Part shown: piece after piece, positions 122 to 7,512 of the stretch | Layout: every line of letters begins with the position of its first letter | Position numbering within the stretch: position 1 is the stretch's first letter | Program-made: the position numbers and the translations under genes | Assembly (NCBI GenBank): GCA_002478145.1 | Contig: DLMI01000217.1 | Span: forward strand, 1-7,512 | Length of the DNA stretch: 7,512 bases | Direction of reading: 5' to 3' | From: Acidobacteria bacterium UBA7540 | GTDB lineage: Bacteria; Acidobacteriota; Terriglobia; UBA7540 | Notes under the pieces: generated by a model | Databases searched by the model: none | The model's input: the letters and a program-made list of their open reading frames with translations, nothing else | What the model was told of the DNA's origin: nothing

Positions 122-131
122 AGAGGTGACC

Positions 132-464
132 ATGGGTGAAAAAAGAGCCGATCTTCTACGTGGAACTCGCGACCTGCTGGTATTGAAAGCGCTGTCCTTG
201 GAACCTTTGCATGGAGTTGGCGTCTCCCGACGCGTCACGCAAATCACCAAGGGAGCCTTTCAGGTGAGTTTCGGTTCGCTCTTCCCCTCTTTGCACCGCA
301 TGGAGGAGAGGGGATGGGTGGAAGCCGAGTGGCGCACGTCAGAAAATAATCGTCGGGCCAAATACTACAGGCTGACTTCATCTGGGCGTACACAACTCAA
401 GGTCGAAGAGCGGGATTGGAACCAGGTGGTCAAGATCATGACGGCGGCCGTTCAATCCACCTGA
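132..464 (+). CDS. PadR-family transcriptional regulator (acidobacterial type)
   Basis: This 110-residue protein is a small winged-helix DNA-binding regulator of the PadR family. The order is typical: an N-terminal helix carrying RGTRDLLVLKAL (about residues 9-20), a helix with LHGVGVSRRV, the recognition region FGSLFPSLHRMEERGWVEAEW-like near 47-68, then the wing and the YYRLTSSGRTQL strand-helix near 80-91, followed by a C-terminal dimerisation helix. It lacks the long C-terminal domain of PadR subfamily 1, which fits the short acidobacterial subfamily usually found next to ADOP permeases. ATG at 132 is chosen as start because the ribosome-binding site GAGG (123-126) lies 5 bases before it. 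An in-frame GTG at 126 overlaps that site and is less likely. The permease gene starts 18 bases downstream, so the two are probably co-transcribed, with this protein repressing the operon. Its inducer cannot be told from the sequence. Confidence 0.92.
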   Translation: MGEKRADLLRGTRDLLVLKALSLEPLHGVGVSRRVTQITKGAFQVSFGSLFPSLHRMEERGWVEAEWRTSENNRRAKYYRLTSSGRTQLKVEERDWNQVVKIMTAAVQST

Positions 465-482
465 GTCCGGATGGGAGGCATC

Positions 483-3311
483 ATGTCAACGCGAATACTG
501 AGTTTGTTCCGGAACCTCTTGCGCAAGCACACAGTTGAGCAGGCATTGGACGACGAACTCCGGTCTTCTGTGGAAGTTCTGACGGAGGAGAAGATGAAGG
601 ATGGGTATTCGCGATCAGCAGCCCGTCGGCAGGCGCTCATTGAACTCGGCGGCGTGGAGCAAGTCAAGGAGGAGGTCCGCGCCATACGGGCTGGGCGCTT
701 TCTGGAGGACTTTGCCAAGGACGTCCGTTTTGCATTCCGTACTCTGGCCAAGTCGCCCGGCTTCACTGCCGTGGCTGTGCTGACGCTGTCGCTGGGCATC
801 GGGGCCAACACCGCCATCTTCAGCATTGTCCACGACTTCATTTTCAGCCCGCGGCCCTACCCCCACGAGGCGCAAGTCGTCCAGTTCTACACGCAGGACA
901 AGAGACACCCCAGCAACTTCCGCTCGTTCTCCTATCCCACCTACACCGACATCCGCGAACGGAGTGCGGCGAGAGCTGTCTTTTCCGGCGTGCTGGCTCA
1001 CAACATGGCGATGGTCAGCCTCGGCGAGGGCGAAACCTCCCGGCGCACGTTCGTTGCTCTCGTCAGCTCGAACTACTTCCGCACGCTCGAAGTTCCGCTG
1101 CTGCGGGGCCGCGCGTTCCTCCCCGAGGAAGAAACCCCCGGCAGCGCCGCCCCCGTCGTCATCGCCAGCCATGTTTACTGGAAGAAGACGGGCTTCGACC
1201 CTCAACTCGTCGGCAAGGCCATCCGGGTCAACGAGCGCTCGTTCACGGTGGTCGGCATCACGCCGGAGCATTTCACCGGAACGATGATGATCTTCGGGCC
1301 CGAGCTCTATTTCCCCCTCGGGGATTACGACCTGCTCACGAACGATTTCGAAGCCCAGGCCAAGCGCACCCTCGAACGGCGCGATGGCTATGCTCTCCTC
1401 CTTGTCGGACGCCTCAAGCCCGGCGTCACCGCCGTGGCCGCAGGGGCTGCCCTCCAGTCCGTCGCCACCAATCTCGAAAGGGCCCTGCCGGTTGAGCAGA
1501 AGGATCAGACTTTCATCATCCGCCCCCTGCCCCGTTTGGACACGGGGGGAAGCCCTACCGACGAGAGCGGTCTGACCGTGATCGGCCTCATGCTGTTTGC
1601 CTTGGCCGCCATCGTGCTCTTCGTCGCCTGCCTCAATCTTGCGAGCGTACTGCTCGCCCGGGGCTTGGCGCGCCGCAAGGAGATTGCCATTCGCCTGGCG
1701 CTAGGGGGCGGCCGCAATCGCATCATCCGGCAACTCCTGACCGAGGGCCTGGTGCTTTCCCTCGCGGGCGGCGCCGGCGGCTTCCTGATCGGTCTTCTGT
1801 CCTCCGGTCTGCTGGCGGCCTCCCTGGGCGCTCGCATGCCGGTGGCCGTATTTCTCCGCGGCGGCGCTGATCCCGCCGTCTTCGTGGCCACCCTCGGCTT
1901 CTGCGCCCTCGCCACGCTATTCTTCGCCCTGGGACCCGCGCTCAAGCTCACGCGCGCCGACCTGGTCACCGATCTTAAGGAGCAGGCGGGCGAGGATTCC
2001 GCTCCGCGCCGCCACCGCTGGCTCCCGCGCAATCCCCTCGTCGTGGCGCAAATCGCTCTCTCGCTCGGCCTGCTCACCGCCGCCGGACTCTTCATCCGTG
2101 GTGCGCTCAAGGCCGGCAGCGTCGAAACCGGCTTTAAAGCCGATTCCACCATTCTCATCGAGGCCGACGCCAGTCTCGGCGGCTACGACCAAACCCGCAG
2201 CTTACAGGTTTATCGCGCTGCTTGCGACCGCCTGGCCGCGCTGCCCGGGGTGCAGGCCGCCAGCATCGCTTCCATCGTGCCCTTCGGTCTCCTCACCCTG
2301 AACCGTCCCGTACAGCGCGCTGGGGCGAAGTCCGGCCCCGACACTCACCCCACTACCGCCGCCGATGGCTTGGCCTTCAGAGTCCGCTGGAGCAGCGTCG
2401 GTGCTGACTACTTCGCGACCATGGGTCTGCCGCTGCTGCGCGGCCGCGCGTTCACCAAGATCGAAGCCGAGGTGCCAGGCGCCCCGCCCGTCGCCATCAT
2501 CGACGAAGTGCTCGCGAAAAAGCTCTGGCCCGAGGGCGACGCGCTGGGCCAGCGCATCCAATGGGCCGAAAGCGGCACTCCCACGGCCGGCGGCGGAGGG
2601 AGCGGCACCATGGGCGTCAGCGACGACATCGCCAGACGCGCCCAGGACCCCCCATCGGTCGAGATTGTCGGGATCGTGCCCGCTACGCGCTGGGAACTTT
2701 TCCAGTCGGGGGTCGGCGGCCAAATTTTCGTGCCCTTCGCGCAAGATTTTCGGAGCAACGTCTTCTTCCATGTGCGCACCGCGCCAAGCGCCGCCGGAGG
2801 TGACGCTGCCTTGCTTGATGTCCTTCGCCGAGAGGTTCGCTCCGCCGCGCCCGGCGTGCCGGTCTTCACGGTGAGAACCTTCCGCCAACACTTCGACGCC
2901 AACATGCAGCTCTGGATCGTCCGGGCAGCCGCCGCCATGGTTTCCCTCTTTGGCGGTCTGGCGTTGGTCCTCGCCGTCGTGGGCGTCTACGGGGTCATGG
3001 CTTACGCGGTGGTCCGGCGCACGCGCGAGATCGGCATCCGCACGGCGCTCGGTGCTGAGCCGGGCGCAGTGCTGCGCATGATCCTCCGCGAAGGCCTGCT
3101 CATGACGCTGGGAGGCGCGGCGCTGGGCTTCCTGCTCGCGCTCGGCATCGGCCGTGCGTTCAGCGGCATGCTTTACCAAGTCAGTCCGGTGGATCCCGTC
3201 GCCTTTACCCTCGCACCCGCCATGCTCGTTGCCACCGCGCTGTTCGCCTGCTGGCTCCCTGCCCGCCGGGCAGCCAAAGTCGATCCCATGGTGGCTCTCC
3301 GCAACGAATAG
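483..3311 (+). CDS. ADOP-family MacB/FtsX-like duplicated permease
   Basis: This 942-residue inner-membrane protein matches the acidobacterial duplicated orphan permease family: two MacB/FtsX-type permease halves in one chain. Residues 1-90 form a soluble helical prefix (permease prefix domain type), then comes SPGFTAVAVLTLSLGIGANT with the first membrane helix (95-117). A MacB-like periplasmic domain (about 125-350) precedes three FtsX helices (about 366-392, 421-447, 465-488). A second half repeats the plan: membrane helix 518-538, periplasmic domain 545-800, helices near 812-842, 868-890 and 908-925. The duplication is clear from RRKEIAIRLALGGGRN (397-412) against RRTREIGIRTALGAEP (845-860), each before a REGL/TEGL helix. 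It ends PARRAAKVDPMVALRNE, the usual FtsX/MacB tail. ATG 483 is preferred because GGGAGG (473-478) lies 4 bases upstream; ATG 471 overlaps this site. No ATPase is encoded nearby, so any energy-coupling partner must be elsewhere. Substrate unknown; relatives act in efflux or envelope stress. Confidence 0.93.
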   Translation: MSTRILSLFRNLLRKHTVEQALDDELRSSVEVLTEEKMKDGYSRSAARRQALIELGGVEQVKEEVRAIRAGRFLEDFAKDVRFAFRTLAKSPGFTAVAVLTLSLGIGANTAIFSIVHDFIFSPRPYPHEAQVVQFYTQDKRHPSNFRSFSYPTYTDIRERSAARAVFSGVLAHNMAMVSLGEGETSRRTFVALVSSNYFRTLEVPLLRGRAFLPEEETPGSAAPVVIASHVYWKKTGFDPQLVGKAIRVNERSFTVVGITPEHFTGTMMIFGPELYFPLGDYDLLTNDFEAQAKRTLERRDGYALLLVGRLKPGVTAVAAGAALQSVATNLERALPVEQKDQTFIIRPLPRLDTGGSPTDESGLTVIGLMLFALAAIVLFVACLNLASVLLARGLARRKEIAIRLALGGGRNRIIRQLLTEGLVLSLAGGAGGFLIGLLSSGLLAASLGARMPVAVFLRGGADPAVFVATLGFCALATLFFALGPALKLTRADLVTDLKEQAGEDSAPRRHRWLPRNPLVVAQIALSLGLLTAAGLFIRGALKAGSVETGFKADSTILIEADASLGGYDQTRSLQVYRAACDRLAALPGVQAASIASIVPFGLLTLNRPVQRAGAKSGPDTHPTTAADGLAFRVRWSSVGADYFATMGLPLLRGRAFTKIEAEVPGAPPVAIIDEVLAKKLWPEGDALGQRIQWAESGTPTAGGGGSGTMGVSDDIARRAQDPPSVEIVGIVPATRWELFQSGVGGQIFVPFAQDFRSNVFFHVRTAPSAAGGDAALLDVLRREVRSAAPGVPVFTVRTFRQHFDANMQLWIVRAAAAMVSLFGGLALVLAVVGVYGVMAYAVVRRTREIGIRTALGAEPGAVLRMILREGLLMTLGGAALGFLLALGIGRAFSGMLYQVSPVDPVAFTLAPAMLVATALFACWLPARRAAKVDPMVALRNE

Positions 3312-3836: not shown

Positions 3837-4583
3837 TTACAGAAGAACCTTTTGCTTTAAATCCTGAGCGGCTTGCATCAGATTTTCCGGCCTGCCGAGA
3901 TCACGCCAATAATATTCATCGGCCCGAAAGGCGAGGATTTTTTCATCGCGGGCGGCGAGATGCAGATAGGAGGTGATGATGGAGAAAACGCCTTCTTCCA
4001 TCATCATCGGAAACAGACGAGGAGAAATAACGTGGATGCCGGAAAAAGCCAGCGCCTGCGCCTGCTGTGAAGATCGCACAAATTCAATGTTTTGATCGCG
4101 CCCGGATCGGCGGCCGCAAAGCTGGAGCTGCTCGTCGAAGATAAGGTATCGAGAGGTCTCCCGGTTTTGCACCGCCAGTGTGGCGAGGGCCTGCTTTTCA
4201 TTGTGAAATTGCACCATGCGGCGGAGATCAATCGTGCTGATGACATCGACATTGTGCAAAATGAACGGCTCTGCAAAACGCTTGGAATCCTCGAGGAAAA
4301 AATAGGCGGCCTTCTTCAGGCCGCCGCCGGTGTCGAGCAGAACCTCCTCGCGCGAGACTTCGATGCGCATGCCGAAGTTATGGTTCGTTTTCAGATAGTC
4401 AAGAATCATGTCGGCAAAGTGATGCACATTGATAATCACCTCGCGAATCCCATAGGCGCGCAAGCGGGAAAGTGTGATCTCTAACAGCGTGCGGCCGGCG
4501 ACTTCCACCAGCGCCTTGGGGCGATCGTCGGTGAGTGGGCGCAAGCGCGTACCGGGACCGGCGGCCAAAATCATCGCTTTCAT
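3837..4583 (-). CDS. MurU-like sugar-1-phosphate nucleotidyltransferase
   Basis: This 248-residue cytoplasmic enzyme belongs to the RmlA/MurU-type nucleotidyltransferase family, which joins a sugar 1-phosphate to an NTP, giving an NDP-sugar and pyrophosphate. The signature is intact: LAAGPGTRLRPLT (6-18) with PK at 22-23 forms the nucleotide and phosphate-binding loop, DTGGGLKKA (84-92) is the base/sugar-binding segment, NVDV (111-114) carries the metal-binding Asp113, FSGIHVISPRLF lies at 180-191, and WRDLG (226-230) holds the second metal-binding Asp228. There is no extra C-terminal hexapeptide-repeat domain, so it is of the short MurU class. Its ATG overlaps the stop of the upstream kinase gene in ATGA, and GGAGG lies 10 bases before it, inside the kinase gene, so translation is probably coupled. 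Next to an AmgK-like kinase the best reading is MurNAc-1-phosphate uridylyltransferase of cell-wall sugar salvage. A mannose- or heptose-1-phosphate guanylyltransferase cannot be excluded. Confidence 0.88.
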   Translation of the reverse strand: MKAMILAAGPGTRLRPLTDDRPKALVEVAGRTLLEITLSRLRAYGIREVIINVHHFADMILDYLKTNHNFGMRIEVSREEVLLDTGGGLKKAAYFFLEDSKRFAEPFILHNVDVISTIDLRRMVQFHNEKQALATLAVQNRETSRYLIFDEQLQLCGRRSGRDQNIEFVRSSQQAQALAFSGIHVISPRLFPMMMEEGVFSIITSYLHLAARDEKILAFRADEYYWRDLGRPENLMQAAQDLKQKVLL

Positions 4584-6007
4584 TTGCCAAAATCCTCCAA
4601 GTCGCGATGCCGCACCACGACCTCCACCCCGTTCCTGCCGCGCAAACGGTTCGCCAATTGCTCCGCCAGATAGACCGCGCGATGCTGGCCGCCGGTGCAG
4701 CCGAACGACACCATCAAGCTCTTGAAGCCGCGACGCTGATAATTGCTCACGCTGGCCTCCACCAGCGACATGACGCTGGCGAGGAACTGGTGCACACTCT
4801 CTTGCTGATTGAGATAATCGATCACCGGCGCGTCTTTGCCGGTGAGAGTTTTGAAGCGCTCTTCCCGTCCGGGATTCGGGAGGCTACGGGCATCGAAAAC
4901 GAATCCGCCACCATGCCCGGTCTCGTCCGTAGGCAGGCCTCGGTGAAATGAAAAACTGAGAATTCGCACCGTGAGATTTTCTGCTTCCGAAGCCAGGCTT
5001 TGCAATTGCTCTGAGCCCAGCATGCTTCTGAACGCGTCCAGCAGCGTGGGCAGCGGGATAGGCAGCTTGACGTTGTGAAGCAGCCAGCGCAAGCTTTTCA
5101 GCGCGTACGGCACGCTTTCGAGAAAGTGAGCTTTGCGCTCATGGAAGCCGCGAAAGCCATAAGCGCCCAACGCCTGCATGATGCGGACGTAAACGTAGGC
5201 ATAGTAGTGCTGCATGAACACTTCGCGCTCGAGCTTGATGAAACCGGCAAGCGTGTCGAGATAATGATCGAGCAATTGCTGGCGCAGCTCCGGGGGCAGA
5301 TCGGCCTTGCCATCGTACAAAAGAGAGGCGATGTCATATTGCAGCGCCCCTCGGCGGCCGCCTTGGTAATCCACAAAAAATGGATGGCCGTCGCGCAACA
5401 TAACGTTGCGTGATTGGAAATCCCGATAGAGAAAGTAATTGCGGTCGGCGCTCAACAAGAACTTCGTCAAGCGGCCGAAATCGTCTTCCAGCGCTTGTTC
5501 GTTGAAGGGGATGGTGGCCAGCCGGAGAAAGTAGTACTTGAAATAATTCAAATCCCAAGCCATGGACTGGCGATCGAAGCTCGAGCGCGGATAGCACACT
5601 TTGTAATTCAAATCGCGCCCGGCTTCGATCTGGAAGCGTGGCAACACGGCAACAACTTTGCGATAGGCTTCCACGGCCTCGGGAGCAATGTTCTCCCCGA
5701 CACGATTCTTCGAGAGAAACTCAAAAAGTGTCGTGTCCCCCAGGTCTTCTTCGAGATAAGCGCCGTGGCTCAAATCTTCAGCATAAATTTCCGGCACCGG
5801 CAGACCGTGTCGGCGAAAATGCCTGGAGAATTCGAGGAAGGCGATATTCTCTTCGCGCACGTCATACAGAATGCCAATGGCGCTGAATTGTTCGCTGGCA
5901 AGCCGGATGATTTTGCGCCCCGAACCGCCCAGCTCGCCCTGAAGCGGCTGCACCCGCCCGACCGCTGAGTGGAAATGCTGCTCAAAAAGTTTTTTGAGAA
6001 CGTCCAT
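4580..6007 (-). CDS. AmgK-like sugar kinase fused to RapZ C-terminal domain
   Basis: This 475-residue cytoplasmic protein has two domains. Residues 1 to about 325 are an aminoglycoside-phosphotransferase/choline-kinase fold of the AmgK type: a GGSGRKIIRL nucleotide-binding segment (27-36), hinge YLEEDLGD (84-91), catalytic loop YRDFQSRNVML (194-204) with Asp196 and Asn201, and metal-binding FVDYQGG (211-217) with Asp213. AmgK phosphorylates MurNAc or GlcNAc at the anomeric carbon. Residues about 343-475 match the RapZ C-terminal domain: LTVRILSFSFHRGLP (345-359), FVFDARSLPNP (369-379), TGKDAPV (389-395), SFGCTGGQHRAVYLAEQLA (434-452) and VVRHRDLED (464-472). The N-terminal P-loop domain of true RapZ is absent, its place being taken by the kinase. 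RapZ C-domains sense glucosamine-6-phosphate and bind small RNAs in enterobacteria. ATG 6007 has GGAAG 8 bases upstream. It is first gene of the operon, overlapping the nucleotidyltransferase by 4 bases. Kinase substrate is inferred; domain calls are firm. Confidence 0.88.
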   Translation of the reverse strand: MDVLKKLFEQHFHSAVGRVQPLQGELGGSGRKIIRLASEQFSAIGILYDVREENIAFLEFSRHFRRHGLPVPEIYAEDLSHGAYLEEDLGDTTLFEFLSKNRVGENIAPEAVEAYRKVVAVLPRFQIEAGRDLNYKVCYPRSSFDRQSMAWDLNYFKYYFLRLATIPFNEQALEDDFGRLTKFLLSADRNYFLYRDFQSRNVMLRDGHPFFVDYQGGRRGALQYDIASLLYDGKADLPPELRQQLLDHYLDTLAGFIKLEREVFMQHYYAYVYVRIMQALGAYGFRGFHERKAHFLESVPYALKSLRWLLHNVKLPIPLPTLLDAFRSMLGSEQLQSLASEAENLTVRILSFSFHRGLPTDETGHGGGFVFDARSLPNPGREERFKTLTGKDAPVIDYLNQQESVHQFLASVMSLVEASVSNYQRRGFKSLMVSFGCTGGQHRAVYLAEQLANRLRGRNGVEVVVRHRDLEDFGK

Positions 6008-6038: not shown

Positions 6039-6173
6039 ACAAAGATATCATCGAACGCGCGATCCGAGAAAGGGTAAGGTCATCGTCCGTGGCAAGTCGA
6101 TGGCCCGAAGCATGGTACCCAGCGGCCGGCATGTCTTGGACTCCTGCTGCGTCGCACCAGCGATTGCAAAAAA

Positions 6174-6182
6174 TGATAAAAT
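6174..6182 (+). promoter_or_regulatory. Possible -10 element of the lipoprotein gene
   Basis: TGATAAAAT resembles an extended -10 hexamer and stands out in otherwise G/C-rich sequence. It ends 10 bases before the preferred GTG start, implying a nearly leaderless message. No -35 box is seen at proper spacing, so this is tentative. Confidence 0.25.
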
Positions 6183-6192
6183 CCCTGGTGAC

Positions 6193-6771
6193 GTGAAACT
6201 TAGAGCCTTGCCATTCTTGTGGTGCAGTCTGGCGTTATTCATCGGAGGTTGCCCGAAGCGGCAAGCCCCCACGCGAATCGTGTACGTTCCTTCGCCACCA
6301 CCCGCGGCTACGCAGGCTTCCGCCGCAGGCGCGCCGTCAATGGTCATCGAAGAGCCGGCGCCGCCCGAAGAGCCCCTAGCGCCTCCGCCTCAGCCAACCA
6401 CCCAGCCTGAACCTGCGCGGCGGCGGCACGTGCTGCGGAGGGAAGCACCGGCCGCGGCCCCTGAAAACACTCCTGAAACGACCGAGCCGCTTACTCCCCA
6501 GGTGCCCTCACAGGTGCCCTCATTGGAGCCGCGCGAGAGTTCTGCCCAGGAAGCGGCTCTGCGCCGCCAAATCCAAGGGTTGCAGGATGACGTCCGGCAG
6601 CGGATTGCCAAACTCAGCCGAGCGGGACTATCCGGCGCGGATCGCAAAACCCTTGACGATGCGCGCACATTCTTCGCACAGTCCACTCGGGCTCTGAATG
6701 ACGCAGACCTCCAACGCGCGCTTAACCTGGCGCGTAAGGCCTCCCTGTTGGTCTCGGCGCTCGAACCGTGA
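6193..6771 (+). CDS. Proline-rich lipoprotein of unknown function
   Basis: Read from GTG 6193 this is a 192-residue lipoprotein. The N-terminus MKLRALPFLWCSLALFIGGC is a textbook lipoprotein signal: basic start, hydrophobic core, and lipobox IGGC with the lipid-carrying Cys20. Residues 21-115 are a low-complexity linker rich in Pro, Ala and Glu, including a tandem QVPSQVPS (103-110) encoded by a perfect 12-base repeat. Residues about 118-192 are predicted helical (RRQIQGLQDDVRQRIAKL, then ADLQRALNLARKASLLVSAL), resembling short helical-repeat tails such as DUF4398-type lipoproteins. A longer reading from ATG 6100 would place 31 polar residues before the signal and bury it, so GTG 6193 is preferred although it lacks a clear ribosome-binding site. 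An A/T-rich TGATAAAAT (6174-6182) lies just upstream and may be a -10 element, giving a very short leader. It is probably anchored to a membrane and spans the periplasm. It is transcribed divergently from the kinase operon. Function unknown. Confidence 0.75.
   Translation: MKLRALPFLWCSLALFIGGCPKRQAPTRIVYVPSPPPAATQASAAGAPSMVIEEPAPPEEPLAPPPQPTTQPEPARRRHVLRREAPAAAPENTPETTEPLTPQVPSQVPSLEPRESSAQEAALRRQIQGLQDDVRQRIAKLSRAGLSGADRKTLDDARTFFAQSTRALNDADLQRALNLARKASLLVSALEP
6499..6522 (+). repeat. 12-base tandem repeat in the lipoprotein linker
   Basis: CAGGTGCCCTCA is present twice in immediate succession (6499-6510, 6511-6522) and in frame, encoding QVPS twice. A recent slippage duplication in the unstructured linker is the likely origin. 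Confidence 0.8.
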
Positions 6772-7068: not shown

Positions 7069-7512
7069 TCACAGCCACAGGTGCCTGTTGGAGTAAAACG
7101 TGACAGGGCCGTGGGGATGTTTGGCTCGGTAGGCGCGATACTGCTTCAACATGGCAGCATATCGGCGGTCGGAGGTCTTGAGCTTCTTATGAGGCATTTT
7201 GATGAGGGCGCGTTCCACTTCCCAGACGCTTTCCTCGGAGAGCCGCCAGTCGCCTTTCACCAAAGTGCGTAATTCAGCGACCCCGTAGCCTGTAATTCGT
7301 CCGGACCCGTCCACGTAAGGGTCCACGTAACTCATCACCAATTGCCGGATGGTGGGAAAGAGTGGCTTGCGTCCATGCAAGCCGGCATCACGGGAGCGGG
7401 CTACTGTTCCCCATCGTCCCCGCCGCCTGAATAGGAACAGGACGTGGTCCAATTGGTCCTGGGATTCGAGGTCGAGGAGCAACGGCGGGTAGCCATGCTG
7501 CTCGAGAATTGT
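7069..7512 (-). CDS. Conserved protein, 3' part only, possibly transglutaminase-like
   Basis: The frame is open to the window edge, so only the C-terminal 147 residues are seen and the start lies outside. The visible part begins TILEQHGYPPLLLDLESQ, then DHVLFLFRRRGRWGTVARSRD, GLHGRKPLF, a segment RQLVMSYVDPYVD, and ends in a basic helical region with YRAYRAKHP. This pattern (HGYPPLLLDL, then DHV, then RWG.A/VA.S...GL..R.P) recalls a family of bacterial conserved proteins with a papain/transglutaminase-like layout. In these the His of DHV would be catalytic and the Cys would lie upstream, beyond this window. That assignment is from memory of the pattern and remains uncertain. A TTG at 7482 could be taken as a start, but the strong similarity in character of the preceding residues argues that the gene continues. 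It converges on the lipoprotein gene across the repeat element. Confidence 0.6.
   Translation of the reverse strand, partial: TILEQHGYPPLLLDLESQDQLDHVLFLFRRRGRWGTVARSRDAGLHGRKPLFPTIRQLVMSYVDPYVDGSGRITGYGVAELRTLVKGDWRLSEESVWEVERALIKMPHKKLKTSDRRYAAMLKQYRAYRAKHPHGPVTFYSNRHLWL

What the first reader, a model, noticed from the sequence alone, without database searches (positions are those of the whole stretch)
4580..6007. Sugar kinase fused to a RapZ C-terminal sensor domain
A complete AmgK/APH-type kinase (catalytic Asp196/Asn201, metal-binding Asp213) is joined to a RapZ C-terminal domain (GCTGG.HR at 436-443, VRHRDL near 465-470), replacing RapZ's own P-loop domain. In enterobacteria this domain reads glucosamine-6-phosphate and sets amino-sugar synthesis. 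Here it sits on an enzyme that would salvage amino sugars, suggesting a single-protein link between pool sensing and kinase activity. The domain calls are seen in the sequence; the sensing role is inference.
Basis: partly seen in the sequence, partly recalled or inferred. Interest (0 to 1): 0.75.

Follow-up and report, generated by a model that had tools for sequence, protein, structure and literature searches.

The report
Cell-wall sugar kinase with RapZ domain
This gene joins a kinase that probably recycles cell-wall amino sugars to the part of the E. coli protein RapZ that binds an amino-sugar phosphate, a pairing seen in several bacterial phyla that could let one protein both salvage the sugar and respond to, or even act on, its phosphate pool.

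The parts
4580..6007 (-). Fusion gene: APH/AmgK-type kinase plus RapZ C-terminal domain, 475 aa, ATG start, TGA stop
5018..6007 (-). Kinase part, about residues 1-330
5405..5428 (-). Catalytic loop YRDFQSRN, residues 194-201 (D196, N201)
   Evidence: D196/N201 invariant in a 38-row alignment; YRDFQSRN in 355 of 360 listed homologues
5369..5371 (-). Metal-binding Asp213
   Evidence: invariant; role by homology to APH kinases (recalled)
4595..4972 (-). RapZ C-terminal domain, residues 346-471
4904..4918 (-). Fusion-specific Gly-rich loop G364-H-G-G-G368 before invariant D372
   Evidence: absent from E. coli RapZ; in 355 of 360 listed fusion homologues
4868..4870 (-). Gly380 at the position of E. 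coli RapZ His190
4679..4702 (-). Phosphate-binding loop GCTGGQHR, residues 436-443 (E. coli C247, T248, G249, H252, R253)
3837..4583 (-). MurU-like sugar-1-phosphate nucleotidyltransferase, 248 aa, 4-bp ATGA overlap with the fusion gene
   Evidence: NF045761 137.9 bits, best of its NCBIfam matches but under the cut-off of 250; overlap read

Best explanation
The gene encodes an anomeric amino-sugar kinase of the AmgK type that most likely makes MurNAc-1-phosphate (and/or GlcNAc-1-phosphate) for the overlapping MurU-like nucleotidyltransferase, giving UDP-MurNAc and bypassing MurA/MurB. Its C-terminal RapZ_C domain binds an amino-sugar phosphate on the CTGGxHR loop and adjusts the kinase or its assembly, so that salvage follows the amino-sugar-phosphate pool. 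Shown here: the two domains, the two-gene unit, conservation, one clade of fusion domains, the remodelled pocket. Inferred: substrate, ligand, direction of regulation. The ligand need not be GlcN6P; losing His190 and gaining a Gly-rich loop would fit a different or bulkier sugar phosphate.
For: Domain calls and fold. The nucleotidyltransferase follows on the same strand in 80 of 80 loci (the best 80 kept of 529 related stretches), 44 with the 4-bp overlap by longest-ORF starts, largest gap 280 bp. In 10 of 10 fusion genomes the fusion is the only match to AmgK model NF045698 and the neighbour is the best match to MurU model NF045761, all under the cut-offs. Divergent murQ upstream in 14 of 80 loci (12 of the 67 with at least 1.3 kb upstream) and murA beyond it in 12 (named by model in one locus). 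AnmK and MurQ in 10 of 10 genomes. Same pair in Bacteroidota; T. forsythia AmgK and MurU let E. coli incorporate MurNAc probes (PMC13041923, passages), though whether that AmgK is the fusion was not checked. RapZ-CTD alone binds GlcN6P (PMC7073468, passages). Loop CxxGxxRS in 358 of 360 listed homologues. Clean natural loss of the domain in L174 with catalytic residues intact fits an accessory role.
Against: Kinase and nucleotidyltransferase score well under the curated AmgK and MurU cut-offs, so another sugar is possible; the MurU model rings in 14 of 14 control genomes (none over its cut-off), so it discriminates poorly. His190 is lost. No coordinates or docking: contact between the domains was not shown, and pTM is only 0.69. 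AnmK and MurQ are not special to fusion genomes (controls ring in 5 and 12 of 14, MurQ over its cut-off in 5) and also fit a MurQ route. murQ is a neighbour in a minority of loci and is not in this window.
Confidence: 0.5

Rival explanations
1. The RapZ_C domain is an active cysteine phosphatase. Its CX5R(S) loop removes the 6-phosphate from MurNAc-6-P (the MupP step), handing MurNAc to the attached kinase: a bifunctional phosphatase/1-kinase.
For: CxxGxxRS in 358 of 360 listed fusion homologues and 44 of 44 canonical RapZ looked at, on a strand-loop-helix; that this is the PTP signature is recalled, and a 2020 review says the RapZ pocket resembles the phosphatase loop of cysteine-dependent tyrosine phosphatases and raises GlcN6P hydrolysis (PMC7199280, passage). 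E. coli C247A, C247S, R253A inactive (PMC9841335, passages). Profile search's next hit after RapZ is LMW-PTP YwlE over the same loop, E 0.89, not significant. AnmK, which makes MurNAc-6-P, in 10 of 10 genomes. In Pseudomonas the route runs AnmK, MupP, AmgK, MurU (PMC13041923, passage).
Confidence: 0.17
2. The domain is an RNA adapter as in E. coli RapZ, so the protein is a kinase that moonlights in sRNA turnover (what the label 'RNase adapter RapZ' implies).
For: 40% identity to E. coli RapZ-CTD; R184 kept and K194/R196 positions still basic in most.
Against: In the window H190 is Gly, K170 His, R211 Gln, R238 Phe, K251 Gln and the basic tail K281-R282-K283 is not kept; K170 is His or Arg in the other Acidobacteriota-type rows and Lys, Arg or His in the five Bacteroidota-type rows. 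H190A and K170A inactivate E. coli RapZ (PMC9841335, passages). Canonical acidobacterial RapZ also lack some of these residues, which weakens the contrast. A separate canonical RapZ is present. No Rfam family in the window.
Confidence: 0.08
3. The domain only helps the kinase assemble or stay soluble (RapZ-CTD dimerises in E. coli) and binds no ligand that matters.
For: E. coli RapZ-CTD forms dimers (PMC5737377, passages); domain lost once without change of catalytic residues.
Against: The phosphate loop is among the invariant or nearly invariant parts of the protein, which scaffolding alone does not explain.
Confidence: 0.15
4. The kinase acts on a different sugar, for example for a nucleotide-activated surface sugar, and the partner makes a GDP-, dTDP- or CDP-sugar.
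For: Both proteins miss the curated cut-offs; the neighbour also matches mannose-1-P, heptose-1-P and glucose-1-P nucleotidyltransferase models.
Against: MurU is the best model for the neighbour in the window and for two Bacteroidota neighbours; murQ/murA beside some loci.
Confidence: 0.2

Closest known systems
AmgK-MurU salvage pair (Pseudomonas, Legionella, Caulobacter, Tannerella; list from PMC13046382, passage)
   Same: APH-fold kinase beside a MurU-like nucleotidyltransferase; catalytic Asp/Asn/Asp kept; top structure 3csv
   Different: Extra RapZ_C domain; YRDFQSRN instead of the RDFHSPN of the alphaproteobacterial kinase looked at; scores far under NCBI's AmgK cut-offs
RapZ (E. coli) C-terminal domain
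   Different: No P-loop N-domain; His190 to Gly; Gly-rich insertion; no basic C-tail; own clade (100/99 support)
TsaE-AmgK fusion of an alphaproteobacterium (Rhizobium sp. NLR16a, L176)
   Same: AmgK-like kinase fused to another domain and followed by a nucleotidyltransferase
   Different: Partner is TsaE at the N-terminus, not RapZ_C at the C-terminus
MupP step of the MurU pathway (MurNAc-6-P phosphatase)
   Same: Would be the activity supplied if RapZ_C is a phosphatase
   Different: MupP is a HAD-family enzyme (recalled); no relation to RapZ_C is known to me and none was tested

Membership tests
AmgK (NCBIfam NF045698, NF045759) | score above the curated equivalog cut-off | tested here: not met
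   56.6 vs 500 bits and 42.4 vs 550; a TsaE-AmgK protein of Rhizobium also misses it at 209.5; control: Caulobacter passes
AmgK (NCBIfam NF045698, NF045759) | APH fold with catalytic Asp, Asn and metal Asp | tested here: met
AmgK (NCBIfam NF045698, NF045759) | phosphorylates MurNAc/GlcNAc at C1 | not testable with these tools
   needs an assay
MurU (neighbour gene) | score above the curated MurU cut-off | tested here: not met
   137.9 vs 250 bits, though the best of its matches
RapZ_C domain (PF22740) | score above Pfam gathering cut-off | tested here: met
   126.9 vs 27 bits
RapZ protein (NF003828) | full-length equivalog score and P-loop N-domain PF03668 | tested here: not met
   121.8 vs 244 bits; no PF03668 in the window protein
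RapZ protein (NF003828) | pocket residues H190, T248, G249, H252, R253 (and C247) | tested here: not met
   all but H190 kept; NPG at that place in 86 of 86 distinct fusions and Gly in 356 of 360 listed homologues
RapZ protein (NF003828) | GlcN6P binding | not testable with these tools
   needs SPR or ITC
Cysteine-dependent (PTP-type) phosphatase | CX5R(S/T) loop between strand and helix (signature recalled) | tested here: met
   CX5R in the window (CTGGQHR, followed by Ala, so the final S/T is missing there); CxxGxxRS in 358 of 360 listed homologues
Cysteine-dependent (PTP-type) phosphatase | PTP/DSP/LMW-PTP fold | tested here: inconclusive
Cysteine-dependent (PTP-type) phosphatase | phosphatase activity | not testable with these tools
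   needs an assay

The most novel reading that the evidence does not exclude
RapZ_C in this fusion is an active cysteine-based amino-sugar-6-phosphate phosphatase, or a self-resetting sensor that hydrolyses its ligand. The protein would be a bifunctional enzyme taking MurNAc-6-P to MurNAc to MurNAc-1-P, and it would reveal the chemical activity from which the RapZ sensor of E. coli derives.
Probability: 0.15. Interest if true: 0.82.

Novelty: new variant of a known kind. Interest (0 to 1): 0.57.

Why it matters
It would couple cell-wall sugar salvage to an amino-sugar-phosphate-reading domain in one protein, in bacteria that include gut Bacteroidota, and explain a probably misleading database label. 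It also gives a clean system to ask whether RapZ_C is a portable sensor, a phosphatase or an RNA binder, because the P-loop domain is absent from the protein and a natural domain-loss relative exists.

Tried and rejected
Rejected: chance resemblance (both domains far over their cut-offs; 27 of 31 class genomes with this kinase have the full or near-full fusion). Rejected: that the fusion replaces RapZ in the genome. Rejected: that long-frame RapZ_C hits elsewhere in the phylum are further kinase fusions. All hits with frames of 440 aa or more were looked at: besides the four kinase fusions they match the RapZ N-domain, not the kinase. Nine of them, and the ordinary RapZ L081, were scanned with Pfam and show RapZ-like_N plus RapZ_C and no APH.

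Led nowhere: own-genome search (no genome held); Rfam (no match); global PTP fold match of the domain; proof that T. forsythia AmgK is the fusion (the passages seen do not say). Not tested: MupP in these genomes; whether Bacteroidota also have a canonical RapZ.

Caveat: Bacillus subtilis and Bacteroides ihuae are among the 14 control genomes (named) but did not ring for PF22740, and Bacteroides ihuae did not ring for AmgK model NF045698. B. subtilis has a RapZ homologue YvcJ (recalled), so the tool may miss some; or B. ihuae lacks the fusion. Absences in these surveys prove little, and the Bacteroides result is against a universal presence there.

Conservation counts therefore describe close relatives of the three queries.

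Full report

The partner gene. The stop of the fusion gene overlaps the ATG of the next gene by four bases. That gene, 248 aa, is a nucleotidyltransferase whose best curated model is MurU (137.9 bits, cut-off 250); the kinase's best kinase models are AmgK (56.6 bits, cut-off 500). So neither passes as a formal AmgK or MurU. In 80 of 80 loci of the genome collection (the best 80 kept of 529 related stretches; 78 titled as Acidobacteriota groups, L018 and L069 otherwise) the pair is on one strand, 44 with the 4-bp overlap. In 10 of 10 fusion genomes the fusion is the only hit of AmgK model NF045698 and its neighbour is the top hit of MurU model NF045761, none over the cut-off. In the 14 controls the AmgK model rings in 2, the MurU model in all 14 (none over its cut-off), so the latter is a weak discriminator.

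Pathway context. In 14 of the 80 loci (12 of the 67 with at least 1.3 kb upstream) murQ lies divergently upstream of the fusion, and in 12 loci murA follows it (similarity search; curated models for one example, L055). The window itself has no murQ or murA match. AnmK and MurQ occur in 10 of 10 fusion genomes, but controls ring too (5 and 12 of 14). This favours MurNAc as the sugar but does not prove it.

Distribution. In 101 genomes of the class, 43 match the protein: 31 hold a kinase of this family (20 at 75-84% identity, 7 at 49-51%, and 4 partial cases: kinase only in G170; C-domain frameshifted in G207; contig ends in G217 and G221) and 12 match only through a canonical-type RapZ_C. In a phylum-wide sample of 149, 131 have RapZ_C and 4 have a fusion copy. 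Outside the phylum the fusion at 38-44% identity is in Bacteroides finegoldii, Phocaeicola massiliensis, Parabacteroides distasonis and a Prevotella, all from records filed as plasmids, with the nucleotidyltransferase adjacent in three of the four (L134-L136; not found near L137). Proteins named Gemmatimonadota, Zixibacteria and Calditrichota are among the hits; their neighbours were not examined. All 360 listed homologues carry PF22740, and 357 also PF01636. NCBI names some 'RNase adapter RapZ' and others 'phosphotransferase'.

One clade, remodelled pocket. A tree of 51 RapZ_C domains puts the 25 fusion domains on one side of a 100/99 branch from 26 canonical ones, with the Bacteroidota-type fusions nested among the Acidobacteriota-type ones. 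The root is unknown and some rows are long, so a single origin is likely, not proven. Of the E. coli pocket (H190, T248, G249, H252, R253, with C247 nearby; PMC5737377 and PMC9841335, passages), everything but H190 is kept. H190 is Gly in 356 of 360 homologues (the rest one Ala, one Trp, one Ser, one not found by the pattern); in 43 canonical RapZ it is His 32, Tyr 9, Asn 1, Phe 1. H190A abolishes the control of GlmZ by E. coli RapZ. A five-residue Gly-rich insertion sits just before the invariant Asp372 in 355 of 360. RNA-contact positions K170, R211, R238 and K251 are changed in the window, R184 is kept and K194/R196 stay basic; the basic tail K281-R282-K283 is not kept. The E. coli C-domain alone binds GlcN6P with KD 10 nM (PMC7073468, passages), so a portable sensor has precedent, but the ligand here may differ.

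Not a replacement for RapZ. Ten of ten fusion genomes carry a second RapZ_C gene, with a RapZ-type N-domain by similarity; of 10 further genomes 8 have two RapZ_C genes, G170 only the canonical one and G217 only the fusion; G160 has two, and the 1.6-Mb G159 only the fusion.

A natural domain loss. In L174 (G170) the kinase, 67% identical over 335 residues (225 identical), stops near residue 346 and the nucleotidyltransferase starts at once; no RapZ_C match remains there. Eight of the 11 genomes of its family carry the fusion, one more has only a canonical-type match and one none. Catalytic residues are kept and only 5 of 87 strongly conserved kinase positions differ. The domain therefore looks regulatory or auxiliary rather than essential to catalysis.

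Phosphatase lead. The RapZ_C loop is CxxGxxRS in 44 of 44 canonical proteins looked at and 358 of 360 fusion homologues. That the pocket resembles the phosphatase loop of cysteine-dependent tyrosine phosphatases, with possible GlcN6P hydrolysis, was already suggested for RapZ in a 2020 review (PMC7199280, passage). The new point is its place on a salvage kinase, where a MurNAc-6-P phosphatase step would come right before the kinase step (order AnmK, MupP, AmgK, MurU in PMC13041923, passage). Support is weak beyond the motif: LMW-PTP YwlE at E 0.89 and no global fold match. The window has Ala where nearly all others have Ser.

Literature. No held paper contains both RapZ and AmgK. Searches for RapZ-domain fusions, RapZ in Bacteroides, RapZ with phosphatase terms and RapZ with muramic-acid terms showed nothing on this architecture in the listings seen (one search listed 25 of 243). 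Only open-licence papers were searched. T. forsythia AmgK/MurU are functional in E. coli (PMC13041923, passages); P. distasonis is of the family Tannerellaceae, as T. forsythia is (recalled), so its AmgK may well be this fusion, but I could not check.

Verdict. A real, conserved and, in the listings searched, undescribed domain architecture in the MurNAc salvage setting; a new variant of a known kind. The sensing idea is plausible, GlcN6P specificity doubtful, and a phosphatase role worth a direct test.

Noticed in passing
window 126-3311 (+): PadR-type regulator (TIGR03433, 129 bits, a model named for Acidobacteria) followed by an ADOP-family duplicated permease (TIGR03434, 746 bits); unrelated to the finding.
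   Followed up: no
L174 5910-7678 (G170): Kinase relative that has cleanly lost the RapZ_C domain while keeping the nucleotidyltransferase partner.
   Followed up: partly
L172 5617-6941 (G207): Fusion whose C-domain is split by a frame change, either an assembly error or a decaying copy; described only.
   Followed up: no
L176 2323-4582 (Rhizobium sp. NLR16a plasmid p3): A second kind of AmgK-like fusion: TsaE plus kinase, again followed by a nucleotidyltransferase.
   Followed up: no
L129, L145-L147, L150-L154: Canonical RapZ genes of some Acidobacteriota sit in open frames with roughly 160-350 extra N-terminal residues without a Pfam match; start codons were not resolved.
   Followed up: partly
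L018 and L069: Records titled Paceibacterota and Betaproteobacteria carry Acidobacteriota-like fusion loci, probably mis-binned contigs.
   Followed up: no
L051 8347-9276 (-): A more distant murQ-like gene (51% to the L055 MurQ) lies downstream of the fusion pair instead of upstream.
   Followed up: no
L139 (phage collection, MT837446.1): An 'unverified bacteriophage' scaffold from human faeces carries a Bacteroidota-type fusion plus nucleotidyltransferase, probably a bacterial contig.
   Followed up: no
window 6100-6771 (+) and 7069-7512 (-): Two ORFs without a significant Pfam match, the first proline-rich; not studied.
   Followed up: no
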